The notes under the pieces: generated by a model
Seen by the model: only the letters and a program-made list of their open reading frames with translations
Databases searched by the model: none
What the model was told of the DNA's origin: nothing
Shown: piece by piece, positions 18,595-51,098 of the stretch
Layout: every line of letters starts with the position of its first letter
Numbering within the stretch: position 1 is the first letter of the stretch
Position numbers and translations under genes: made by a program
Assembly: GCF_000758165.1 (NCBI RefSeq)
Contig: NZ_JNUP01000065.1
Span: forward strand, 209,359 to 273,358
DNA: 64,000 bases
Direction: 5' to 3'
Origin: Spirochaeta lutea
Lineage (GTDB): Bacteria > Spirochaetota > Spirochaetia > DSM-27196 > Salinispiraceae

Positions 18595-18631
18595 AACACA
18601 GGCCGGGCAAGGTGACTGCCCGGCCTGTGTT
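18595..18631. terminator. Strong bidirectional hairpin terminator
   Basis: A perfect 15-bp stem (AACACAGGCCGGGCA with TGCCCGGCCTGTGTT) and a seven-base loop lie between the 3' ends of the chemoreceptor and permease genes. On the plus strand TATTG follows the stem. On the minus strand CAGTTCCTGTTTTATC follows. It probably terminates both genes. Confidence 0.8.
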
Positions 18632-32859: not shown

Positions 32860-34227
32860 TTACTCTATACCGTAATCCCGGATTTTCTGGAGGAGGGTTT
32901 TCCTGGTGATGCCCAGTTCGGCGGCGGTATGGGTTCGATTGCCGCCATGGCGGAGCAGGGCTGCGGTTATGGCGTGTTTTTCCAGTTCCCGGAGGGAGGA
33001 CCCGGCCGGGGGGCGGGAGTCTGGAGAACGGGAGTCCGGGGAACGGGAGTAGGGGGAGGAGCCGGTCTGAGCAGCCGGACGAAGCTCCGGGAGGGCTTGG
33101 AGAATCTGGGCCTCGGTGACGCGTCGGTTGTCCGATAGAATGGCACAGCGTTCCAGGATGTTTTCCAGCTCCCGTATATTGCCCGGAAAGCGGTACTGTT
33201 CCAGGCGTCGGATGGCCTCGGGTTCGACGGATAATTCAGCCAGACCGAGACGGTTTCGGATGGAATCCAGCAGGATGGCGGTGAGCTCCGGGAGATCCTC
33301 AAGACGGTGACGCAGGGGAGGTAGGGTTATAGGGATGACATTGAGCCGGTAGTAGAGATCCGTTCGGAAGGTGCCCTGGGTAACCATTTCTGCCAGGTTC
33401 CGGTTGGTGGCGCAGATAACCCGGATGTCCACGGGAATTTCCCGGGGATTTCCCACCCGGCGAACCGTACCTTCCTGGAGTACCCGGAGGAACGCCGCCT
33501 GCATGGAAAGGGGAAGTTCCCCGATCTCATCCAAGAAGAGGGTGCCGCCCTGAGCCGTTTCGAAGAACCCCTCCCTGCGGGTTGCTGCACCGGTAAAGGC
33601 ACCCTTTTCGTAGCCGAAGAGTTCGCTTTCCATGAGTTGTTCGGGTAGGCTCGCCAGGTTGACCGGCAGGAAGATCCGGTCGTGCCGGGGGGACTGCTGA
33701 TGGATCCACTGGGCGGTAACCTCCTTTCCGGTGCCGCTCTCCCCGGTGAGCAGAATGGTTGATTTGGTGGCTGCGGCCTTCAGCGCCAGGGTGTAGTTTC
33801 GGCTGTTCTGGGGTGAGGAGCCCCAGTAGCAGGAGGTTTCGGGGATTTCCCGGGTGCGCCGTTCCAACTGTGCGGTGTGCAGGGTCCTGCGGATACGGAG
33901 TAGAAGCTCCTCGGGATCGTAGGGTTTTGTCAGGTAGTCCCTGGCGCCCAGTTTCATGGCCTGCACCGCATCCGCCACCTCGCCATGGGCGGAGAGAATA
34001 ATGACCGGGGTAGTGATTCCCAGGGCTGTAATCCAGGCTAACAGCTCTAACCCGTCCATGCCGGGCATTCGCAGGTCTAGAAGGATGAGTTCGTAGACCC
34101 TACGGCTCAAGAGAGACTGGGCCTCCAGGCCTGAGGCTGCACTCTGGCATTCGAATCCCTCCAGTTCTAAGAAACGGGAGAGACTCTGGCGGACATTTTG
34201 ATCGTCATCGACAAGGAGGGTGGTCAT
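32860..34227 (-). CDS. NtrC-family sigma-54-dependent response regulator
   Basis: A 455-residue transcriptional activator. The receiver domain (1-120) has phospho-acceptor Asp51 in ILLDLRMPGMDG. The AAA+ domain (about 140-370) has Walker A GESGTGKE, the sigma-54-contacting loop GAFTGA and Walker B GGTLFLDEIGELPL. A Pro/Ser/Arg-rich linker with tandem PDSR-type units (about residues 385-405) leads to a FIS-type helix-turn-helix (HGGNRTHTAAELGITRKTLLQKI). It overlaps the histidine kinase gene by four bases and is the last gene of the efflux operon. That operon begins at a sigma-54 promoter, so autoregulation is likely. Confidence 0.93.
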   Translation of the reverse strand: MTTLLVDDDQNVRQSLSRFLELEGFECQSAASGLEAQSLLSRRVYELILLDLRMPGMDGLELLAWITALGITTPVIILSAHGEVADAVQAMKLGARDYLTKPYDPEELLLRIRRTLHTAQLERRTREIPETSCYWGSSPQNSRNYTLALKAAATKSTILLTGESGTGKEVTAQWIHQQSPRHDRIFLPVNLASLPEQLMESELFGYEKGAFTGAATRREGFFETAQGGTLFLDEIGELPLSMQAAFLRVLQEGTVRRVGNPREIPVDIRVICATNRNLAEMVTQGTFRTDLYYRLNVIPITLPPLRHRLEDLPELTAILLDSIRNRLGLAELSVEPEAIRRLEQYRFPGNIRELENILERCAILSDNRRVTEAQILQALPELRPAAQTGSSPYSRSPDSRSPDSRPPAGSSLRELEKHAITAALLRHGGNRTHTAAELGITRKTLLQKIRDYGIE

Positions 34228-35456
34228 GGTTTCTCCGGAAGTATAAGGATAAGGGTTGTACCCTGGGAGCCGGTATTCCCCAGGATGAGGTCGCCTCCGG
34301 CGGCCTGGGCGAACTGTCGGGAGATTGCAAGGCCCAGCCCCGAGCCCTGGGCCTTGGTGGTGGCGAAGGGGGAAAACAGCCTGGGTAACAGATCCGGATC
34401 GATGCCGGGGCCTCGGTCCGTCACGGATATTCGGATGTTACGCCGCCGTATTTCCGCGGTTATGTGGACCGGCGGGGGACTGCCCGCTTGTTTGGCGTTG
34501 GTTATGAGATTTTCGAAGATTGAGCGCAGGTGGTCTGGGTCTATGAAGATCCTTCCAGGGATGCCCTGGGGTACAGCAATTTCTTGGGGATACTGGCGTT
34601 GTAGATCTGTCATGAAAGATTCTAATGCCAGATATTCGGGCGAACCCTGGGGAGCGACAAGAAGCTGGCGGATCTTTCCGCTGAGGCGATTCAGGCGCTC
34701 CACCTCCTGGGTTATGCTCTGGATATCCTGCTGGGCCTCAGGTGGGCTCAGGCGTTCCAGCACCCCCAGGCGCAGGCTGATGGCGTTGAGGGGGTTTTTA
34801 ATCTCGTGGCTGATGGTCCGGGAGGCCTCTCCAAGGGTTACCAGGCTGCGCTGGGCCTCCAGGGTCTGACGGTACCGCTGATTTGTCAACAGGATCCGGG
34901 CGATCCAGGCCATGGCTCCTCCCAGGACTCCCACCAGAACCACGAAGGTCGACCAGGTGAAGAAGGTCGGCCTCGGGGGTGAACTGGGTACTGCCTTGAG
35001 GTAGAGCAGGCTGGGCGGGTTTTGTACCGGTAGTTCTCCGGGGAACCCCTGGCCCTCCCGGGGCGGGGGCGGAAATCCCCGGCTTGCAAACCGCCGGAGG
35101 TAGATCAGACTATCATCCCGGGATAGACGGCTGAGCTGTTCCTTCGGGGCCTCGGGATCTGCAGTGAGGTGTTCGGGGGCGTCTCCTTGGGCCACCAGGG
35201 GGAACCCGGATTCGTCGTAGAGGGCGAATCCGGTAATCTCCAGGGGGAGGTCTCCCGAGGCCCGCTGCAGGTAATTCCCCGAAGGATTTGACCGAACCAG
35301 GGCAATGGTTTGAGCCAGGGCTTGTTCGAGCTGGTACTGGGTAAGCAGTCTGCCCCGGGATATCTCGCTCTGGAACACCAGGAAAAACATGGCGGAAAGC
35401 AGGAGGAAAACAAGGGTGAGGAGAAAGAGCGTAATTGCCGGCTGTCTGGTTCTCAT
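34224..35456 (-). CDS. Sensor histidine kinase of the efflux operon
   Basis: A 410-residue NtrB-type kinase. An N-terminal helix and a second near residue 170 flank a periplasmic region of about 130 residues, with a Pro-rich stretch (GFPPPPREGQGFP). The H-box is ISHEIKNPLNA, the N-box ENLITNAKQAG, and the G boxes DRGPGID and GSGLGLAIS. It would phosphorylate the overlapping NtrC-like regulator. I use ATG 35456, which has AGGA five bases ahead; ATG 35471 is also in frame, would give 415 residues and would overlap the permease gene by eight bases. Confidence 0.9.
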   Translation of the reverse strand: MRTRQPAITLFLLTLVFLLLSAMFFLVFQSEISRGRLLTQYQLEQALAQTIALVRSNPSGNYLQRASGDLPLEITGFALYDESGFPLVAQGDAPEHLTADPEAPKEQLSRLSRDDSLIYLRRFASRGFPPPPREGQGFPGELPVQNPPSLLYLKAVPSSPPRPTFFTWSTFVVLVGVLGGAMAWIARILLTNQRYRQTLEAQRSLVTLGEASRTISHEIKNPLNAISLRLGVLERLSPPEAQQDIQSITQEVERLNRLSGKIRQLLVAPQGSPEYLALESFMTDLQRQYPQEIAVPQGIPGRIFIDPDHLRSIFENLITNAKQAGSPPPVHITAEIRRRNIRISVTDRGPGIDPDLLPRLFSPFATTKAQGSGLGLAISRQFAQAAGGDLILGNTGSQGTTLILILPEKP

Positions 35457-35463
35457 GGGGATC

Positions 35464-36651
35464 CTATTCATAACTTAATGCCTTTATGGGATCCAGTCTA
35501 CTTGCCCGGAAGGCGGGGTAGAACCCGAAAAACAGTCCGATAGCCGTGGAGACACCCAGGGCCAGCATAATCGCCCCGGTGTTGGGCATAAAGGCCCAAC
35601 CCAGGGTATTTGAAACCGCCAGACTGACCCCCATCCCGACTCCCACGCCCAGAATTCCTCCCAGGGAGGTAAGAACCCCGGCCTCGATAATGAATTGCCC
35701 CATAATAACCCCGGGAGCCGCACCGATGGCCTTTCGGATCCCGATTTCCCTGGTCCGTTCAGCTACAGCCACCAGCATGATATTCATTATTCCGATGCCC
35801 CCCACCAACAGGGAAATTGCGGCTATGCCGGAGAGCAGGAGTTGCAGGGTTCCGGTTACCTCCGAAGCGGTCTGGGCGATGGTCGCCGGGCTTAACACCC
35901 GGTAGTTCCCCTCCCCAAGAATCTTATCCAGAAACTCCTCCAGGTCGGCCTGGACGGCCAGGGGATCGGCTCCCGGTATAATCCGGATGGACAGAGAACC
36001 TACCTGGGAGCTGCGGGTATACCGTTGTGCGTAGGTCTGATAGGGAATGTATACGGCGCTGTCGTAGCTTACCCCGAAACCGGCGGATTTTTCTTCCATC
36101 ACCCCGATAATCTCGAAGGTCCTGATCTGTCCTCCCCCGGTTATTCGGACCCGTTTACCCAGGGCATCCTCTTCGGGAAACAATTCCTCGGCTACCTCGG
36201 ATCCAAGGACTACCAAGGATCGCCTGGCAGCCTCGTCAGCCTGGGTAAAAAAGCCCCCGGCTTCCGGGCTGTAGTCCATGACCGAAGCGAACTCTGCGGG
36301 AACCGCATTGGCGGTTCCCTGCCAGGTTTGATCGCCGCTGCGGATTTGTACCCCCGTTTGGCTTTGGGGGAGGACTGTGGCTATATCCGGAATAAAGCGC
36401 AGGATGGGTTCAATAAGCTCCCCGGTAAAATTATCCCGGATTTCCCGGCTGCCGCCCCGGGGGCTAACGGTGAGGTTTTCCAGACCGGCCTGGGCAATAG
36501 AACTGGTAACGCTGGCTGAGGCGCTCTCCCCCAGGCTGGTGATGGTTATTACCGAGGCAACCCCGATGACAATACCCAGCAGGGAAAGCAGGGTCCGCAT
36601 TTTATTAGAGGTCAGGCTGTGGATAGCCAATCTGAAGTTTTCTAGGATCAT
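35464..36651 (-). CDS. MacB-type ABC transporter permease (FtsX-like)
   Basis: A 395-residue mechanotransmission-type permease. One N-terminal helix (KMRTLLSLLGIVIGVASVITI) is followed by a large periplasmic MacB core domain (about 45-265) and three C-terminal helices (IGIMNIMLVAVAERTREIGIRKAIGA is the family signature). It would couple ATP hydrolysis to movement of substrate through the HlyD and TolC partners rather than carry it through the membrane. It overlaps the ATPase gene by four bases. Confidence 0.93.
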   Translation of the reverse strand: MILENFRLAIHSLTSNKMRTLLSLLGIVIGVASVITITSLGESASASVTSSIAQAGLENLTVSPRGGSREIRDNFTGELIEPILRFIPDIATVLPQSQTGVQIRSGDQTWQGTANAVPAEFASVMDYSPEAGGFFTQADEAARRSLVVLGSEVAEELFPEEDALGKRVRITGGGQIRTFEIIGVMEEKSAGFGVSYDSAVYIPYQTYAQRYTRSSQVGSLSIRIIPGADPLAVQADLEEFLDKILGEGNYRVLSPATIAQTASEVTGTLQLLLSGIAAISLLVGGIGIMNIMLVAVAERTREIGIRKAIGAAPGVIMGQFIIEAGVLTSLGGILGVGVGMGVSLAVSNTLGWAFMPNTGAIMLALGVSTAIGLFFGFYPAFRASRLDPIKALSYE

Positions 36652-37394
36652 GGTTGTACTCCTCCTGCCGGTCCGATATCCGATTCAATGAGGCCGTCCC
36701 GGATGGTGATGGTCCGCCGGGTCATAGCACCGACCTCGGGATCGTGGGTTACCATGACCACTGTAAGTCCTTGTCGGTTGAGATCCTGGAAAAGCTCCAG
36801 GATCTGATGCCCGGTTTTTGAGTCCAAGGCACCGGTGGGCTCATCGGCAAGGAGAAGACTCGGCTGGGTAACGATGGCCCGGGCGATGGCGGCCCGCTGC
36901 TTCTGTCCCCCTGAGAGCTCGTTGGGTTTGTGGTGTACCCGGTCAGCCAGACCAACCCGTTCCAGGGCCTGGACCGCGAGTTTTTTGCGTTTTGCCAGGG
37001 ATACACCGGCGTAAAGCAGAGGAGCTGCTACGTTCTCCAGGATGCTGGTGCGGTTCAGGAGATTAAACTGCTGAAAAACAAAGCCTATCTTCCGGTTTCG
37101 CATCCGGGCCAGCTGGCTCTCCCGCATCCGGGCGGTTGATTCTCCGTCGATGAGAATTGATCCCCCGCTGGGGGTATCTAAACAGCCCATGAGGTGCATG
37201 AGGGTGGACTTCCCGGATCCGGAAGGGCCCATTATGGTGGTTAATTCCCCGGGGTTTATGGTGATTGAAACGCCCCGCAGGGCATCCACCCGCACCGCTC
37301 CCATCTGATAGGTTTTTTCCAGGTCGACGGTTCGGATAACCGGTTCGCCGGACGGACTCTTGAGAAGGGATATGCCTTCAGGTTTCTGCTTCAT
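36648..37394 (-). CDS. MacB/LolD-type ABC transporter ATP-binding protein
   Basis: A 248-residue ATPase with Walker [10 protein letters not shown], signature [15 protein letters not shown], Walker [16 protein letters not shown] and H-loop THDPE. The [18 protein letters not shown] and [17 protein letters not shown] blocks are typical of the MacB/LolD subgroup. It energises the FtsX-like permease encoded four bases into its own 3' end. It starts 11 bases after the HlyD gene. Confidence 0.94.
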
Positions 37395-37405: not shown

Positions 37406-38656
37406 CTAATTCCGGGTGCCGGAGGGGCCGGTGGGGCCGGAGCTACCGCTGGGTGGTGCTGGGCCGTCTGCTGGGGGTGCGAAGCGGCTGGGGTCGCCTC
37501 CCCGGCTTCCCTGGCCGCTGCCAGGCAGTCTCAGCCCTGGAAGAGAGAAGCCGTTTTGGGCGCTGGTCTGTTGAGACATGACTTCCTCGGCCGCTGCAGC
37601 CGAAACAACCTGAAGCCCATCCTGAACCTCTCCGGAGATTTGGTACTCCAGCAGGCTGTGTTCCTGGATTTCCACCGGGAGAGGACTAACCCGGAGGGGA
37701 TCCTGGGAAACGACCTGGTAGAGTATACCCCGGTCCTCCGTGAGGGATTGGACTGCCCGTTTATCCACAATCAGGGCCTGTTCCTCGGCTGAAACAAACA
37801 CCGAGCCCGAGAAACTAAAACCGGGCAGGATACTTTCCGGCACCTGGTCTAGGCTGATATCCACATCCACAACGGTGTAGCCGTTTCCGGTGACTGTTCC
37901 CTCCTGGGCAATTTCGAGGACAGCTCCGTAGACCGGAGTATCTTCCAGGGCATCGAAGTATACCCGCACCTCTTGCCCTGGTTTGATCCTGGGAACATCC
38001 AATTCGTCAACGGATACCGTGGCCATAAGGTCGTGCCTGGTGATGATCCGGGCGATTGTCCCTCCTTTCTCCACGGTATCGCCGGATTCCACCGGCACCT
38101 CAACCACCAATCCAGAGAACCCTGCATACAGCCGGTAGTTTGTTCTCTTCTCTTCCAGGAGGGCGAGCTGGCTTCGAAGCAGGGCAAGTTTACGGGGTGA
38201 TCCGGAAATGGCCTCCTGTTCAATTTGGTACTCCAGTTCGGCAATCTGGTAGGAAAGCTCACTGTTGTCCAGCCGGGCGATAAGATCACCCTGATCAATC
38301 CACTGCTGTTCCCGGACCTCCAGACTCTCTAGGCTACCCGCCAGGGAAAAGCTGTAGTTCCTGGATTCCCGGGGCTGGACATTACCTGAGATCTCCACCT
38401 CCTGGCGCGCCGAGGCGGCTTGTACCTGGTAGATGGCCGTATCCTGGGCGAGGCTGAGCTGCCGGGCGGTTGGATTGGCCTGATCGGAGGTTGGCTCTGC
38501 CCCATCCCCGGGACGGTTCCGGTCTGTAGACTGGTCTGAGGCAGCACCAGTGAGGGGGACATTCGCCTGGGAGATGAGGATGTAGGCTCCCGTGCCCCCT
38601 CCCAGGATTACAATGGCCAGTACGGAAATGATTATAATAACGGTTCGTCGTCTCAT
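37406..38656 (-). CDS. Periplasmic adaptor (HlyD/MacA-family) protein
   Basis: A 416-residue membrane-fusion protein. An N-terminal helix (residues 6-27) anchors it. A lipoyl-type half motif (IDQGDLIARLDNSEL) and its partner (SGLVVEVPVESGDTVEKGGTIARI) flank a short coiled-coil hairpin (about 125-165), and a beta-barrel region follows. The last 45 residues are low-complexity Gly/Pro/Ser. It bridges the inner-membrane permease and the outer-membrane TolC-like channel. It overlaps the TolC gene by four bases. Confidence 0.9.
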   Translation of the reverse strand: MRRRTVIIIISVLAIVILGGGTGAYILISQANVPLTGAASDQSTDRNRPGDGAEPTSDQANPTARQLSLAQDTAIYQVQAASARQEVEISGNVQPRESRNYSFSLAGSLESLEVREQQWIDQGDLIARLDNSELSYQIAELEYQIEQEAISGSPRKLALLRSQLALLEEKRTNYRLYAGFSGLVVEVPVESGDTVEKGGTIARIITRHDLMATVSVDELDVPRIKPGQEVRVYFDALEDTPVYGAVLEIAQEGTVTGNGYTVVDVDISLDQVPESILPGFSFSGSVFVSAEEQALIVDKRAVQSLTEDRGILYQVVSQDPLRVSPLPVEIQEHSLLEYQISGEVQDGLQVVSAAAAEEVMSQQTSAQNGFSLPGLRLPGSGQGSRGGDPSRFAPPADGPAPPSGSSGPTGPSGTRN

Positions 38657-40128
38657 AGGGTTATCCTTGTTTGCTGAATTTCTAGGGATAGGATGTTCAG
38701 GGCCAACATGCGGCCCTGAATTCGGGATAGTTCCAGGTTCCGCCGGGCTTGCTCCAGGGCTGACGCGCTGGAGAGGCCGGATTGAACGGCTTGAGCCGTT
38801 TTATCCAGGGCGGTCTGACGGACCTGGGTTTGCAGACGCCAGGATTTAATCTCGGTTTCTAGGGAGGTTATCTGGCTTGCCAGGTTTCGGATCTGCCTCT
38901 GGCCCTCGGAGATTGCCTGGTCGAGGGCGAGCTGGGCGGTGTTGACCTGGATTTGGCTGTTCCGGCGGGTGAGGGCTTCCTCCTTGGTATTCTCCGAAGT
39001 CCAGGAACCCGAGAGGGTGATGTTCCATAGGTCCTGGGGGTTTTGGGTTGAACCCATGGTAACCGAGAGTCCGATGTCCCAGGCTCCGGGGTTCTCCAAA
39101 ACCGCCCCGGCCCAAAGGGATCCGGAGAGTTGGTCGGTGGTATACCTCCCCCCCGCTCCGGCGGTAAGCCTCACCTGGGGATCATAGGACACCATGGCTT
39201 CGGCATCCTGGATCATAATACGTTCCAGGGAAGCTCTGGCCGTGCGGAGACTAGTCAGATCCGCCAGAGCAGGGACTGTCGGCAGCCGGGATTCATCGGG
39301 TTGATCCAGGGGGATGGCGAGCAGGGTTTCAGGGGTGAGCTCCAAGATACCGGTTAGCTCCCCTAGTTCTGTTACCCCGGCTTCCAAAGCGAGGGTGGCC
39401 AGTGAAATGGTAAGCTCTCCGGAGAATTGTTCCTCAAGCAACTCCTGGACAGCCAGACTGCTCTCTGCCAGATTGTCGACCTTTCGGGCGGTGTCCAGCT
39501 TCTGGCCGACGCTTTCCAGGGCACTCTCAGCTTGGAGAATCTTCTGGTGTTCGCTGTGGATCGTCTGAAGGGTTGCAATAATGGTTGCGGCGATGTCGAG
39601 GCGGGTTTGTGCATGAGCCCGAAGATTATCCTCCAAACCCTGGCGGTATTCTACACTGGCACTGTCCGGGATGGAGACAAGGTCGTCCAGGGTAAGCTGG
39701 TATTCCAGGGTTCCCTGGATGGAGGACCCTTCTGCCAGCTGAGGAACGAGCTCCAGGGGAGCGGAGATACGGAGGCTCTGGTTTCGGGGCAGATTGAGCT
39801 GGACAACCGGGGTGGCTGTAAGGCTTGAATGGCCTTGGTCTGTCCGGCTGCTGTAGCTGATCCCCTGGGTGCCGGTGGAGAGAGAAATTTGGGGCTGTTC
39901 GATTCCCAACCGCAGGGTCTCGCGGTTTTCCAGGAGCTCCCACTCCAGGTTGAGACGCTCAAGTTCAGGACTGGTGGTTTCAGCCGCCCGGATGAGTGAC
40001 TCAAGCCGGAGGGATTGGACGGATGATTCCTGGGCGGATACCATCCCCAAGCCGACGGTAAGAACGAACAGGAGCCCGAAGGCTCCTGTTCGTAGGGTGT
40101 GTGTTGAAATCCTTTGGTACTGCTGCAT
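38653..40128 (-). CDS. TolC-like outer-membrane efflux protein
   Basis: A 491-residue outer-membrane channel protein, first gene of the efflux operon. An N-terminal signal peptide (RTGAFGLLFVLTVGLGMVSA, cut before QES) is followed by two long helical repeats typical of the OEP family (for example DKTAQAVQSGLSSASALEQARR near residues 440-465). I use ATG 40128, since the signal peptide then starts properly; a TTG at 40164 would place the start inside the sigma-54 promoter. The predicted transcription start is only one to three bases ahead of this ATG, which makes the message nearly leaderless. Confidence 0.88.
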   Translation of the reverse strand: MQQYQRISTHTLRTGAFGLLFVLTVGLGMVSAQESSVQSLRLESLIRAAETTSPELERLNLEWELLENRETLRLGIEQPQISLSTGTQGISYSSRTDQGHSSLTATPVVQLNLPRNQSLRISAPLELVPQLAEGSSIQGTLEYQLTLDDLVSIPDSASVEYRQGLEDNLRAHAQTRLDIAATIIATLQTIHSEHQKILQAESALESVGQKLDTARKVDNLAESSLAVQELLEEQFSGELTISLATLALEAGVTELGELTGILELTPETLLAIPLDQPDESRLPTVPALADLTSLRTARASLERIMIQDAEAMVSYDPQVRLTAGAGGRYTTDQLSGSLWAGAVLENPGAWDIGLSVTMGSTQNPQDLWNITLSGSWTSENTKEEALTRRNSQIQVNTAQLALDQAISEGQRQIRNLASQITSLETEIKSWRLQTQVRQTALDKTAQAVQSGLSSASALEQARRNLELSRIQGRMLALNILSLEIQQTRITL

Positions 40129-40138
40129 GGTGATTAAC

Positions 40139-40156
40139 TTGCAAAATGCGTGCCAA
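40139..40156 (-). promoter_or_regulatory. Sigma-54 (-24/-12) promoter of the efflux operon
   Basis: On the minus strand TTGGCACG (40156-40149), four bases, then TTGCAA (40144-40139) match the sigma-54 consensus at all key positions, with GG and GC separated by exactly ten bases. The operon it heads ends with a GAFTGA-containing activator. The expected transcription start is near 40130. Confidence 0.85.
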
Positions 40157-40160
40157 ATAA

Positions 40161-40182
40161 ACAAAAATGAATTTGTTTTTGT
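40161..40182. promoter_or_regulatory. AT-rich palindrome just upstream of the sigma-54 promoter
   Basis: ACAAAAATGAATTTGTTTTTGT is palindromic except for two TG pairs on either side of its centre (arms ACAAAAA and TTTTTGT). It is centred about 42 bases upstream of the expected start. It could bind a repressor or bending protein, or serve as a proximal activator site. Confidence 0.4.
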
Positions 40183-40216: not shown

Positions 40217-40234
40217 ACAGGCCTTCAGGCCTGT
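40217..40234. promoter_or_regulatory. Candidate upstream activator site for the efflux operon
   Basis: A perfect 18-bp palindrome, ACAGGCCTTCAGGCCTGT apart from its central TC, is centred about 96 bases upstream of the expected start, a usual distance for NtrC-family enhancers. It could alternatively be a weak hairpin behind the hybrid kinase gene, but no T run follows on the minus strand. GGTGCACC (40195-40202), a smaller palindrome, lies between the two. Confidence 0.45.
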
Positions 40235-40344: not shown

Positions 40345-43300
40345 TTACAGCTCCTCTTGGATTAATCGGTCCAGCTGCTCCTGGGCTTTGGGGAAGTCGA
40401 AATCCTCTAGGGCTTGGCGGATCTCTGAGAGTGGTTGTTCCCAGGTGTGGTAATCTGGGTTGGATAATAGGTCGCGGATTTGCGGAAGGGCTGCACTATC
40501 GCTCGAGGAGATCAATGCTAAAAGGTCCTCCAATCCTTGGCGGAGCTGGTCGGGTGACCTGTTAGATGCGTATCGGGATGATGATTCTGCAGGTAGGTCC
40601 TGGGTCGAAATCCATCCCTTCAGGGATTCAATTAGGGAGGTGATGCCTTGAAGCATGGTTTCTTCCAATTTTTCCACGCCCTTTGCATCAGGAGTGGTTT
40701 GCAAAGCCTCGTTCAAGGCAGCTACCTCGGATTGTAGTTCCCGAGCGCCCAGGGTGCCCAGGATGCCTTTCAAGGTGTGGACTTCCCGAATTCGTGCTTT
40801 CAGGCCGGAACTCTCTGCTAGGGATTGGTACCGTTCCGTAAAATCCTGGTAGGTGGTATAGAAGGTGCGGAGAAGACGCTGGTATAGTTTGTAGTTTCCC
40901 TGGAGTCGGCGGATTGCCCCGGCCTTATCCACGGTGGGAAGGTTCGGTACCGCGGGGGAGTCATCCCGGATATCCATCGAAGTATCCTCGGCCTGGTCCT
41001 CTTGAATTTCCAGGGAGTCAATGCCCTGACCACGGGAATCCAGGAGATTAAGCATGGTCTGAAACAGGTGTTCGATGACAATGGGCTTGGTGATGTAGCC
41101 GTTCATACCCGCTTTATGCACCTGCTCCTCAACCCCTGCCATGGCATCAGCAGTCATGGCCAAAATGGGAATGCTCCCAAAGGCCTGGTCCTTGCGAATT
41201 TCTTCCGCTGCAGAGTAGCCGTCGAGCACGGGCATTTGCAGGTCCATGAGAATAAGATCCGGGGGGGTCAAGGCTTTGGCCGCATCCTGTACCGCCTGGA
41301 TGGCCTGCTGTCCATTGAGGGCTTCTTGGACTTCTAACCCCTCGGCTTCCAACACTTCCCGGGCTACTTGGCGGTTTATTTCGTTGTCTTCCACCAACAG
41401 GATCCGGATTTTACCGAGGGCATGGAGTTCCGCACTGAGTTTATCCAACGCGGTACCCCCTGTCTTGGATGGCCTTAATTCCTCCCCTAACACTGCCATG
41501 AGGGTATCAAAGAGCCGGGATTGGCTAACCGGCTTGCTCAGGAGAGCATCCACACCGTTGGTTTCCAGAATGTCCGGAGAGAGCTCGTCCCCGAAGGCGG
41601 TCACGAGGATGAAGACTGCATCGGACTGCGGACCTGTCTGTTCCCGGATGGCACGGATGGTTTTTAAACCGTCTTGGTCGGGCATCTGGTAATCAATCAG
41701 AAAGAGGGAGTAATGGTCCGGAGGGTGGGATTCCAGGGCCTTGAGACTGTCCTGGCCGCAGGAAACCCGGTCCACCTGGAGGCCGAAATGCTCCATGTAG
41801 CGGGCCATGACCTCCCGCATCGCTTCGTTGTCATCGGCCACCAGGGCTCGTTTATCCCGAAGGATCTGAGGAGCAGCCAGGCTCTGGGGTTGAGCCTGAT
41901 CTGCCTGCAGGCCCAGTTCCAGGGTAAAGAAAAAGGTGGTTCCTATGTCCTGCTGGCTATCCAGCCAGATTGTGCCGCCTTGAATTTCTACCAGGCGTTT
42001 GGTAATGGATAGGCCAAGACCTGTTCCTCCGTATTTCCGGGTAATGGAGCTGTCGGCCTGACTAAAGGCTGCAAATAAATTATGTTGCTGGGCCGGGCTC
42101 ATGCCTATTCCGGTATCGGCGACGGAGAACCTGAGTACCACCCGCTGGCGGTTGAACCGTGCTACCTGAATATCCACCCGGACTTCCCCGTGATGGGTGA
42201 ACTTGACGGCATTTGAGCAGAGGTTCAGAAGAATTTGGTGAAGCCGCAGGGGATCGCCGATGAGCATCATTGGAACATCGGTTCCCTGGGAGAGGATGAA
42301 TTCCAGGTTCTTCTCCTGACACTTCAGACCGATGACTCCCACAAGGCCGTCAATGATATCCTGAAGATTGAAGGGAGTGGATTCAATACTGAGTTTCCCT
42401 GCCTCAATCTTCGAAAAATCAAGAATGTCGTTGAGAATCCCCAGAAGGTTCTGGCTTGCCTGGGTGATTTTATCGGTGTAATCCTGCTGCTGGGCTGTGA
42501 GGGACGTCCGGGAGAGCAGGTGGGACAGCCCCATAACGGCGTTCATCGGGGTGCGGATTTCATGACTCATATTCGCCAGAAAGCTGCTCTTCGCCTTGGT
42601 TGCCTGTTCGGCGATTTCCTTAGAACGGCTCAGTTCATCGTTGAGGTGCTTGAGATCGGTAATATCGCTGGAGAGCCCGAAGAGGCCGAGGATGCGTCCC
42701 CGGCTGTCGAAGAGGGGGCGTTTGCTGGTACGCTCATACCGGCTGTCCCCCGCTAGTCCGATGTAGTGGTGGATCCGATCGGTTACCGGCTGGGCGCTTC
42801 GCAAGACCTCTTTATCTTCTTCCCAGAATTCCTCAGCGATTTCCCGGGGGAAGATCTCAAAGTCTGTTTTGCCAACGGCATCGCGCCAATGGGCGAATCC
42901 TAGGAGTAGCGCGAACTGCTGGTTAACAACCCGGTACCGTCCCTGGACATCCTTGATGAACATATAGTCCCCGGCGTTTTCCAGGATGGCAATGAAGTCC
43001 CGGGTCATTTCGATGAGCTCTGAGATATCCCGAAACAACATGACAGTGCCGATCTGCTCTCCTTCCCGGGTGAGGGGAACACTGGAGAGTTCGGCATTGA
43101 AGGCTGTGCCGTCCTTGCGCCAGAGCAGCTCATCGCCGTTTTTATACACGGTTCCCTGGGTCCGGGTTCGCAGGACCGGGCATTGGTCCTCGGGGTAGGG
43201 GGAGCCCTCGGGCAGGGTATGGTGGAAGAGGGTGTGGGGATTGCAGCCCTTGAGCTCCTCCTGGCTGTATCCCAGAATCGCGCTTGCAGCGGGATTGCTG

Positions 43301-44946
43301 AACATGATCAGACCCTGGTCGTCCAGTTCAATAATCCCCTCCTGGACAGATTCGAAGAGCAGCCGGAGCTGCTCCTCCGCCTGGCGTACCTGGGCCTCAC
43401 GGTTCCGGATCTCGGTAATGTCGGTAATCAGGGCGAAGGAGCCCAATTGAAAACCGTCATTGGTACTCATGGGTGCAAGGTTGACGAGGCACGGCACCAG
43501 GCTGCCCTCGGATTTCTGGAAGCATAGATCGTAGGAACCCTCAGTTCCCGCTAACTCCTGAAAGGATTCCTCCCAGCGCCGGCTGTCATCGGGAGCCATA
43601 AAGGATTCCAGGGGGCGGCCGAGAATATCCTCCTCCCGGCGATCCAGAATCTGACAAAAGGCGGGATTGGCTTCCATGATTTCGCCGTAGGTATTGATGA
43701 TGGTAAAGCCTTCCTGGGCGGTCCGAAGAATCTCCCGGAGCCGGTGTTCGGAGTTCGCTGCCTGTTGTAGCGCACGCTGAAGCTCGGTTGTCCGGTTATC
43801 CACCTCCTGTTCCAGGCTGCGTTTATGGGTATCCAGTTCCTCCTGGTACTTGCGGTTTTGCCGGGTGTATTCCCAAAAGGCCTGGCTTAGTTCCTGAAAT
43901 TCCGCGCTTCCCCCATGGTGATGGGGGGAGAATTCCTGGGAACCATCCTCGCCAAGGCTTCGGACCCCCCGGGTCAGGGCTGCCAGGGGAGTAGTGACCA
44001 ACCGGGATGCCGCGATACTCATGAGAATCCCCATCAGGGCCAGGCTGATACCCAGGGGGAGGATACCGGATCGAATGAAGTGATTCTGCTTGTCTAGGTA
44101 GATAGATTCAGACATGGCGGACAGCAGAAACCCCGGAGGCTGGGTCAGGCGCTGGGAACTCAGGATGTACCGGTTGTTTCCTAACGAACGGGAAACCGGC
44201 CGGTCCGACTCGAGGATGTCCATGAGCTCCGGCCCCCGGGGTAAATCGGTCAGGTATTGGCTGGGAACACCGGTGTTACGGCCGTCGGTACTGAAGTACC
44301 CGAACCAAAAAAGATTGCCTGGGGGTACGGCGAGAATGTTCCGGATATTATCCATGGTAACATCCATGCCGATGACCCCGTACACCTGCCCTGAGGGCTG
44401 TACCAGAGCCCGGACTACTCCAATATTGACCAGATCTTCGGTAACCGATGGATAGGGTTCGGTGAGCACGGTCTTGCCGCCCTGGGAGGCAGCCTGGATG
44501 TACCAGGGCCGCAGTCGCGGATCGTAGGCAGTGTTGCGCTGTCTCGGGTGGCTGCGGACAAAGCTGCCGTTCGCCCTGCCCATGTATACTGAGTTAACCG
44601 CAGGGTGGGTCAGGCGGTAGGCATTAAAGATGTTGATGATTGTCTGTTCCCGGGGCCCTGGTGATAGCGTGAAGACCTCGGGGTCTGCATTCAGGTAACT
44701 GGTGAAGTCCTGGTGGTCTTCTTGGGAAACCGTTTGAATCCCCGCCAGGGTTTCCAGGTCCGATTTAGTACGCTCAAAGTAGGTATCCAGCTCACGGGTA
44801 GCAGCGGCTGAACGCGTGTACAGGATCTCCAGGCTTTCTTCGTAGGCTCTGGATTTCTGGAGAAGATAGAGGCTGAGCCATCCGCTGCCCATGACTACCA
44901 GAGAAATAACAAGTAGGCCGAGCAGCAGCTGGGTTCGGAGTTTCAT
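40345..44946 (-). CDS. Giant hybrid sensor histidine kinase (Cache-PAS-kinase-REC-REC-HPt)
   Basis: A 1533-residue phosphorelay protein. Order of parts: an N-terminal helix; a periplasmic double-Cache domain (about 30-270, with the ligand-loop motif YDPRLRPWY); a second helix and HAMP; three PAS domains (about 390-760); kinase H-box ANMSHEIRTPMNAVMG (about 820); ATPase domain with ENLCSNAVKFTH-like N-box and GTGLGLSI; receiver 1 (LFLIDYQMPDQDG); receiver 2 (LILMDLQMPVLDG); and a C-terminal HPt domain with VHTLKGILGTLGA. The HPt domain would pass phosphate to an outside receiver, and the REC-HD-GYP protein encoded three bases upstream is a natural candidate. It starts at ATG 44946. Confidence 0.93.
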   Translation of the reverse strand: MKLRTQLLLGLLVISLVVMGSGWLSLYLLQKSRAYEESLEILYTRSAAATRELDTYFERTKSDLETLAGIQTVSQEDHQDFTSYLNADPEVFTLSPGPREQTIINIFNAYRLTHPAVNSVYMGRANGSFVRSHPRQRNTAYDPRLRPWYIQAASQGGKTVLTEPYPSVTEDLVNIGVVRALVQPSGQVYGVIGMDVTMDNIRNILAVPPGNLFWFGYFSTDGRNTGVPSQYLTDLPRGPELMDILESDRPVSRSLGNNRYILSSQRLTQPPGFLLSAMSESIYLDKQNHFIRSGILPLGISLALMGILMSIAASRLVTTPLAALTRGVRSLGEDGSQEFSPHHHGGSAEFQELSQAFWEYTRQNRKYQEELDTHKRSLEQEVDNRTTELQRALQQAANSEHRLREILRTAQEGFTIINTYGEIMEANPAFCQILDRREEDILGRPLESFMAPDDSRRWEESFQELAGTEGSYDLCFQKSEGSLVPCLVNLAPMSTNDGFQLGSFALITDITEIRNREAQVRQAEEQLRLLFESVQEGIIELDDQGLIMFSNPAASAILGYSQEELKGCNPHTLFHHTLPEGSPYPEDQCPVLRTRTQGTVYKNGDELLWRKDGTAFNAELSSVPLTREGEQIGTVMLFRDISELIEMTRDFIAILENAGDYMFIKDVQGRYRVVNQQFALLLGFAHWRDAVGKTDFEIFPREIAEEFWEEDKEVLRSAQPVTDRIHHYIGLAGDSRYERTSKRPLFDSRGRILGLFGLSSDITDLKHLNDELSRSKEIAEQATKAKSSFLANMSHEIRTPMNAVMGLSHLLSRTSLTAQQQDYTDKITQASQNLLGILNDILDFSKIEAGKLSIESTPFNLQDIIDGLVGVIGLKCQEKNLEFILSQGTDVPMMLIGDPLRLHQILLNLCSNAVKFTHHGEVRVDIQVARFNRQRVVLRFSVADTGIGMSPAQQHNLFAAFSQADSSITRKYGGTGLGLSITKRLVEIQGGTIWLDSQQDIGTTFFFTLELGLQADQAQPQSLAAPQILRDKRALVADDNEAMREVMARYMEHFGLQVDRVSCGQDSLKALESHPPDHYSLFLIDYQMPDQDGLKTIRAIREQTGPQSDAVFILVTAFGDELSPDILETNGVDALLSKPVSQSRLFDTLMAVLGEELRPSKTGGTALDKLSAELHALGKIRILLVEDNEINRQVAREVLEAEGLEVQEALNGQQAIQAVQDAAKALTPPDLILMDLQMPVLDGYSAAEEIRKDQAFGSIPILAMTADAMAGVEEQVHKAGMNGYITKPIVIEHLFQTMLNLLDSRGQGIDSLEIQEDQAEDTSMDIRDDSPAVPNLPTVDKAGAIRRLQGNYKLYQRLLRTFYTTYQDFTERYQSLAESSGLKARIREVHTLKGILGTLGARELQSEVAALNEALQTTPDAKGVEKLEETMLQGITSLIESLKGWISTQDLPAESSSRYASNRSPDQLRQGLEDLLALISSSDSAALPQIRDLLSNPDYHTWEQPLSEIRQALEDFDFPKAQEQLDRLIQEEL

Positions 44947-51035: not shown

Positions 51036-51066
51036 CCAACAGTATAATCCCAAACTCCGAAAAGTC

Positions 51067-51098
51067 CCCGGCAGCCATAACAGCATGGCTGCCGGGGT
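51067..51098 (-). terminator. Rho-independent terminator of the oxidoreductase gene
   Basis: A perfect 13-bp stem (CCCCGGCAGCCAT with ATGGCTGCCGGGG) and six-base loop, followed on the minus strand by ACTTTTC. It lies 29 bases beyond the oxidoreductase stop codon. Confidence 0.8.

What the first reader, a model, noticed from the sequence alone, without database searches (positions are those of the whole stretch)
40139..40156. Near-perfect sigma-54 promoter heading an efflux operon that encodes its own sigma-54 activator
TTGGCACG-N4-TTGCAA (GG and GC ten bases apart) lies directly upstream of the TolC-like gene. Five overlapping or closely spaced genes later the operon ends with a histidine kinase and a GAFTGA response regulator. 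This suggests a self-contained positive-feedback circuit for export of an unknown compound sensed by the kinase.
Basis: partly seen in the sequence, partly recalled or inferred. Interest (0 to 1): 0.6.

Follow-up and report, generated by a model that had tools for sequence, protein, structure and literature searches.

The report
Self-activating sigma-54 efflux operon, probably leaderless
A probable spirochaete switches on a MacB-type export pump together with its own sensor and activator from one sigma-54 promoter, a known kind of circuit, but here the promoter seems to sit so close to the first gene that the message would begin at the start codon.

Summary
The site is real. TTGGCACGCATTTTGCAA lies on the minus strand at 40156-40139. 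It is the only exact match in the window, the top scorer, and a 1-in-40-shuffles event or rarer. It heads six tightly packed genes: TolC-like, adaptor, ABC ATPase, MacB-like permease, histidine kinase, GAFTGA response regulator. The genome has rpoN and six strong sigma-54 activators. In 81 loci around related regulators, sites scoring >=15 lie upstream on the sense strand in 27 and on the antisense strand in 4. Near the first efflux gene they occur in 7 of the 23 other efflux operons whose upstream DNA was held, so conservation is partial. Autoactivation of an efflux operon by its own sigma-54 two-component pair is a known kind of circuit. The addition is geometry: nominal +1 is 40129 and the ATG is 40128, so there is no leader, and the TolC gene alone in its operon lacks a Shine-Dalgarno match of 4 nt or more. 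A same-family genome repeats the exact spacing although its TolC protein shows no detectable sequence similarity, and both genes carry a perfect 12-13-bp hairpin within the first 100 nt. A raw class-wide ATG count showed no spike at that spacing. No RNA data exist.

The parts
40139..40156 (-). sigma-54 (-24/-12) promoter TTGGCACGCATTTTGCAA
   Evidence: same site at the head of the operon in G002
40128..40129 (-). nominal transcription start (+1 = 40129) and first base of the TolC ATG (40128): leader of 0-1 nt, no Shine-Dalgarno
   Evidence: spacing counted; SD scan; start codon choice supported by a signal-peptide-like N-terminus (by eye)
40064..40093 (-). perfect 13-bp hairpin with UUCG loop on the sense strand, +37 to +66 of the mRNA, inside the signal-peptide codons of the TolC-like gene
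   Evidence: unique in the genome; a different 12-bp hairpin in the G002 gene
40217..40234 (.). palindrome ACAGGCCT-TC-AGGCCTGT centred near -96: candidate upstream activator site
   Evidence: no binding evidence; unique in the genome at 0 mismatches
40159..40178 (.). AT-rich imperfect inverted repeat centred near -39, of unknown role
38653..40128 (-). TolC-like outer-membrane efflux protein
   Evidence: Pfam OEP 24.0 bits, cut-off 22
37406..38656 (-). periplasmic adaptor (HlyD/RND_mfp type)
   Evidence: Pfam; NCBIfam TIGR01730 100.7 bits, cut-off 94.9
36648..37394 (-). ABC ATPase, MacB/LolD/DevA type
35464..36651 (-). MacB-like permease (MacB_PCD + FtsX)
34224..35471 (-). membrane histidine kinase (HisKA + HATPase_c; N-terminal region with no Pfam match, possibly two TM helices and a periplasmic part by eye)
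   Evidence: alignment
32860..34227 (-). NtrC-family response regulator (REC, sigma-54 AAA+ with GAFTGA, Fis-type HTH_8)
40345..44946 (-). upstream hybrid histidine kinase; no terminator-like site found between it and the operon, so a possible source of basal read-through
   Evidence: inference

Best explanation
A sigma-54 RNA polymerase promoter at 40156-40139 drives one six-gene transcript for a tripartite ABC export pump (TolC-like, adaptor, split MacB-like ATPase and permease) and the histidine kinase/NtrC-type regulator pair that most likely activates it. Envelope stress or a toxic compound sensed by the kinase phosphorylates the regulator. It binds upstream (candidate palindrome 40217-40234), its GAFTGA ATPase opens the promoter, and pump, kinase and regulator rise together. 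Basal kinase and regulator probably come from read-through of the hybrid-kinase gene upstream. The mRNA starts at or one base before the TolC AUG and is translated as a leaderless message. Shown by computation: promoter sequence, operon layout, domains, rpoN, sense-strand enrichment of sites at related regulators, and the geometry in two same-family genomes. Inferred: transcription start, activator identity, signal, leaderless translation, any role of the hairpin.
For: Site strength and rarity. One RpoN gene; rpoN in 72 of 75 genomes holding the related regulator. GAFTGA or GSFTGA in 79 of the 80 RRs of the fetched loci; in the other my pattern found no match. Matrix score >=15 in the 7 kb upstream of the RR: sense strand 27 of 81 loci, antisense 4 of 81. 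A site near the first efflux gene in 7 of 23 other full operons, including the same-family G002. The same pattern type fits a proven spirochaete sigma-54 promoter, B. burgdorferi rpoS (passages and primer table of PMC1976401). No-leader geometry: nominal +1 / ATG at 40129/40128 and, in G002 (L087), 7179/7180, while the two TolC proteins show no detectable similarity. TolC is the only one of the six operon genes without an SD match of >=4 nt. Among all sites scoring >=13 in 1.58 Mb of held loci, SD-preceded starts lie only at 22 or more bases after the -12 C (24 counts), and no-SD starts without an SD alternative cluster at 10-12 (6 counts; two are near-identical loci).
Against: No RNA data. 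16 of 23 related full operons lack a site >=15 near the first efflux gene; in some of these the operon may begin further upstream (an SDR-like gene precedes TolC in several), but this was not settled. Five other strong EBPs could act here. A raw count of ATGs 8-17 nt after sigma-54-like sites across 394 genomes of the class shows no spike at spacing 12 (16 of 150 listed; the highest is 29 at spacing 10), and of the 30 loci fetched there only 5 had a long ORF at that ATG. Several other sigma-54 genes in this genome and its relatives have normal leaders with strong SDs. The palindrome has roughly a few per cent chance of arising at random by my own rough estimate, and no motif is shared by the related loci.
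Confidence: 0.7

Rival explanations
1. The promoter is a genuine sigma-54 promoter, but the operon is activated by another EBP, and the RR at the end of the operon acts on other targets.
For: Six strong EBP matches in the genome. In many related loci the HK-RR pair sits without the efflux genes and has its own upstream sigma-54 site.
Against: Gene order and the recurrence of a site at the head of whatever unit contains this RR type (sense 27 against antisense 4 of 81 loci).
Confidence: 0.17
2. The operon is expressed mainly by read-through from the hybrid-kinase gene or from a sigma-70 promoter; the sigma-54-like site is decorative or minor.
For: No terminator-like site on the minus strand between 40345 and 40128.
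Against: No sigma-70-like promoter found in the 217-bp gap (consensus scan only). Site score beyond shuffles, recurrence in G002. Read-through RNA would have no SD for TolC.
Confidence: 0.08
3. Promoter and feedback are right, but the message is not leaderless: sigma-54 initiates a few bases off or translation starts elsewhere, and the repeated spacing is coincidence.
For: No class-wide spike at spacing 12. Other sigma-54 genes here have SD leaders.
Against: Exact spacing repeated in G002 and in the adaptor gene of G379, and also in two lower-scoring HK genes (L103, L157). No SD; no better start codon in the window or G002 genes.
Confidence: 0.25

Closest known systems
ZraPSR of Escherichia coli (sigma-54 envelope-stress two-component system)
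   Same: Membrane HK plus NtrC-type RR; autoregulation of its own sigma-54 units is recalled from the literature. Related spirochaete loci pair such an HK-RR with a sigma-54 site and a small secreted protein. Linked to antibiotic tolerance (passages of the review PMC12046405).
   Different: NCBIfam ZraR model 336.6 bits against a cut-off of 760 and ZraS 100.6 against 479: not members. Here the pair sits inside an export-pump operon; no zraP seen.
curA operon with CorSR of Myxococcus xanthus
   Same: A two-component pair encoded inside the efflux/tolerance operon that it regulates, with putative sigma-54 promoters (abstract and passages of PMC3707914).
   Different: Copper oxidase/P-type ATPase cargo, several internal promoters, metal signal known.
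Predicted sigma-54 control of MacB/FtsX-type ABC exporters (COG0577, COG1136)
   Same: The same link of sigma-54 to this transporter family, predicted by motif search (passages of PMC12316311).
   Different: Enrichment reported there for gamma-Proteobacteria, Opitutia and Bacteroidia; in the passages I saw, no operon-encoded activator and no leaderless start.
MacAB-TolC tripartite efflux pump
   Same: TolC-like channel, adaptor, MacB-type periplasmic core and FtsX domain.
   Different: ATPase and permease are separate proteins; MacB equivalog scores 241.6 and 232.6 bits against a cut-off of 966.
Leaderless mRNAs of Leptospira
   Same: Spirochaetes in which leaderless transcripts are common; sigma-54 promoters also seen (abstract and passages of PMC5243855).
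   Different: No sigma-54-driven leaderless operon described in the passages I saw.
Rrp2-RpoN-RpoS of Borrelia burgdorferi
   Same: Experimentally proven spirochaete sigma-54 promoter with a similar -24/-12 sequence and an NtrC-type RR (passages of PMC1976401).
   Different: Target is a sigma factor; the gene has a leader.

Membership tests
sigma-54-dependent promoter | GG and GC doublets ten bases apart in the TGGCAC-N5-TTGC context | tested here: met
sigma-54-dependent promoter | rpoN in the same genome | tested here: met
   1.1e-54
sigma-54-dependent promoter | transcript start about 12 bp downstream and dependence on RpoN | not testable with these tools
   no RNA data
NtrC-family bacterial enhancer-binding protein | REC + sigma-54 AAA+ with GAFTGA + Fis-type HTH | tested here: met
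ZraSR (equivalog) | NCBIfam ZraR and ZraS models above cut-off | tested here: not met
   336.6/760 and 100.6/479 bits
MacB (equivalog) | fused ATPase-permease above the NCBIfam cut-off | tested here: not met
   241.6 and 232.6 of 966 bits; two separate genes
TolC-type outer-membrane efflux protein | Pfam OEP above the gathering score | tested here: met
   24.0 against 22; marginal
operon autoactivated by its own sigma-54 two-component system | activator gene inside the unit, with a sigma-54 promoter at its head | tested here: met
   (layout only)
operon autoactivated by its own sigma-54 two-component system | the activator binds upstream and is needed for expression | not testable with these tools
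   palindrome is a candidate only
leaderless mRNA | nominal 5' end at or next to AUG, no SD | tested here: met
   prediction from promoter geometry, not a mapped end
leaderless mRNA | class-wide spike of ATG at that spacing | tested here: inconclusive
   no raw spike at 12; long-ORF no-SD starts cluster at 10-12 but few

The most novel reading that the evidence does not exclude
A sigma-54-controlled leaderless operon in which the activator-gated promoter is placed flush against the AUG, and a strong hairpin within the first 100 nt of the coding sequence acts together with the missing leader. Messages started at the sigma-54 promoter are translated at once by 70S ribosomes that melt the hairpin. 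Read-through RNA from upstream cannot initiate at this SD-less AUG, so the hairpin forms and polarity or termination silences it, making pump output dependent on the EBP.
Probability: 0.13. Interest if true: 0.72.

Novelty: new variant of a known kind. Interest (0 to 1): 0.42.

Why it matters
Sigma-54 promoters are normally read as heads of leadered, Shine-Dalgarno messages. If this operon is leaderless, an activator-gated promoter and a non-canonical translation start are fused in one element, and expression could be tied to how the ribosome handles leaderless RNA (stress, kasugamycin, altered ribosomes). It also ties MacB-type export to an envelope-sensing sigma-54 circuit in a bacterial group where little is known of efflux control.

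Tried and rejected
Looser consensus matches in the window and sigma-70 or terminator scans are at chance level and were not used as positive evidence. A class-wide test for an ATG spike at spacing 12 was negative in raw counts. The in-gene hairpin as an ordinary intrinsic terminator: no U-tract follows it, so I do not call it one; Rfam gave only a sub-threshold match. Hairpin as a genomic repeat: rejected, single copy. A shared activator-site motif across related promoters: not found. TolC search in the three family relatives: no hit; adaptor search found only G002, so G003, whose contig starts inside the ABC gene, gave no third test. Genome-contig search with the kinase gave only distant hits. 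No structure prediction was run. The organism is called a probable spirochaete only by inference (Borrelia-like sequences recalled by eye in the same class); no call names the genome. The leaderless count includes sites (L099, L103, L125, L140, L144, L157) that I added by hand because they lie near a gene; one search is the version without hand choice. The FULL-operon count is 24 fetched loci, not the 27 noted earlier.

Full report
OBSERVATION. It is the only exact TGGCACN5TTGCW in the window. With a weight matrix I wrote from memory of the consensus it scores 21.1, the highest in 64 kb; 40 shuffles gave one site >=20 and none >=21.1. In the 3.53-Mb genome there are eight exact matches. A stricter variant, TTGGCAYRN5TGC, gives 11 in this genome against 3 for the reversed control, and 31 against 15 over four genomes of the family; four of the 14 in G002 are a repeated element that is probably not a promoter.

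ANATOMY. Six genes follow without room for other promoters: TolC-like, adaptor, ABC ATPase, MacB-like permease, histidine kinase, NtrC-type regulator, with four overlaps of 4-8 bp and one 11-bp gap. The regulator has REC, sigma-54 AAA+ and Fis-type HTH domains and a GAFTGA loop. The genome has one rpoN and six strong sigma-54 activator matches, this RR among them. The kinase has HisKA and HATPase_c domains. Upstream, 217 bp away on the same strand, ends a hybrid histidine kinase; the scan found no terminator-like or sigma-70-like site on the minus strand in the gap.

COMPARISON. I searched 61 relatives and 392 genomes of the phylum (65 of 392 had a match at E<=1e-108) with the regulator, and fetched 80 stretches around the best matches. 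In the 7 kb upstream of the regulator, a sense-strand site scoring >=15 occurs in 27 of 81 loci (window included) and an antisense one in 4 of 81. Of 24 fetched loci with adaptor, ATPase, permease, kinase and regulator, 23 had the upstream DNA in hand; 7 of these 23 have a site >=15 near the first efflux gene, and 16 do not. In some of the 16 an SDR-like gene precedes TolC and the unit may start further up, which I did not settle. rpoN was found in 72 of the 75 genomes checked. GAFTGA or GSFTGA was printed for 79 of 80 regulators; in the other my pattern found no match. So the link between this regulator type and sigma-54 sites is firm, while promoter placement before the pump is conserved only in part.

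THE START OF THE MESSAGE. With the C of the -12 element at 40141 the nominal +1 is 40129, and the only sensible start codon is ATG at 40128 (the protein then begins with a signal-peptide-like sequence; by eye). TolC is the only gene of the six with no SD match of four bases or more. In G002, of the same family, +1 is 7179 and the ATG 7180 (L087), the same spacing, although the two TolC proteins show no detectable sequence similarity (no hit). In one search the same spacing also appears for an adaptor gene in G379 (L148) and, with weaker sites, for kinase genes in G379 (L103) and G409 (L157); six sites of that list were added by hand. A scan without hand choice over all held loci (1.58 Mb, score >=13) gave SD-preceded ATGs of long ORFs only at 22 or more bases after the -12 C (24 counts); no-SD starts without an SD alternative at 10-12 numbered 6 (window, G002, G379, one HD-domain-like protein by eye, and two near-identical Borrelia-like loci), with scattered others at 2, 15, 18, 26, 29, 32 and 34. 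The reversed control motif gave 6 counts in all. Against this, a raw count of ATGs after sites in 394 genomes of the class shows no spike at 12 (16 of 150 listed; 29 at 10), and only 5 of 30 fetched examples had a long ORF at that ATG. Other sigma-54 genes in this genome, such as two sigma-70-family factors (Pfam) and small heat-shock-like genes (by eye), have ordinary leaders with strong SDs. So the leaderless geometry is a feature of a subset, well supported here, not a general rule.

THE HAIRPIN. Codons about 12-22 of the TolC-like gene form a perfect 13-bp stem with a UUCG loop on the sense strand, +37 to +66. In the window only three perfect inverted repeats with arms of 12 or more exist; eight shuffles gave none. 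The G002 gene has an unrelated perfect 12-bp stem at +66 to +99. Across the 80 fetched loci (997 kb) 27 such repeats were found, 2 of them inside operon genes recognised by similarity (the G002 TolC gene was not recognised by similarity and is not among the 2). None of the other 20 sites checked had a stem of 12 or more in the first 150 nt, though L085 had one of 11. Two same-family genes with strong, unrelated hairpins in the same small stretch is unlikely to be chance, but the role is unknown: no U-tract follows either stem. My boldest reading, translation-gated insulation from read-through, is in the section on the most novel reading.

REGULATION. A palindrome ACAGGCCT-TC-AGGCCTGT at 40217-40234, centred near -96, is where an activator would be expected; it is unique in the genome, but no common motif was found at related promoters.

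LITERATURE. Two-component pairs inside the efflux operon they control with sigma-54 promoters are known (curA/CorSR, passages of PMC3707914). Sigma-54 control of MacB/FtsX exporters was predicted in 2025 for other classes (passages of PMC12316311). The rpoS promoter of Borrelia is a proven spirochaete sigma-54 promoter with a similar sequence (passages of PMC1976401). Leaderless mRNAs are common in Leptospira (passages of PMC5243855), and Sinorhizobium has both leaderless starts and RpoN motifs (passages of PMC3616915). In the searches and the passages read I saw no description of a sigma-54-driven leaderless operon; most subscription journals are not held, so this is not proof of absence.

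VERDICT.

Noticed in passing
G000 C69:12859 (L187) and C3:312068 (L166); G002 L168, L178: Sigma-54 sites with short SD leaders precede two sigma-70-family sigma factor genes in this genome (Pfam) and similar-looking genes in the same-family G002 (by eye), reminiscent of the Borrelia RpoN-RpoS cascade.
   Followed up: partly
L172, L179 (G000), L161, L164 (G001), L171 (G002): Sigma-54 sites precede small heat-shock-like genes (by eye) in three genomes of the family.
   Followed up: no
G002 C1:2224495-2232812 (L180, L182, L184, L186): Four near-identical repeats containing TTGGCATGAAAAATGC look like integron cassette (attC-type) repeats rather than promoters (by eye).
   Followed up: no
L084, L101, L106, L121, L125, L140, L152: Related HK-RR pairs are preceded by a sigma-54 site and a small secreted, often Gly/Arg-rich protein; of the three scanned, none has a Pfam family above cut-off.
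   Followed up: partly
window 18595-18631 and 51066-51097: The two other perfect inverted repeats with arms >=12 in the window (15 and 13 bp), possibly terminators.
   Followed up: no
L122, L127, L133, L144: In several related efflux operons a gene that looks like a short-chain dehydrogenase (by eye) lies just upstream of TolC; in L144 a sigma-54-like site (score 15.9) lies near its beginning.
   Followed up: no
L202, L205: Borrelia-like genomes have a sigma-54-like site with an ATG 10 nt after the -12 C and no SD before an ORF whose product looks like an ABC-type membrane protein (by eye): another possible leaderless sigma-54 start.
   Followed up: no
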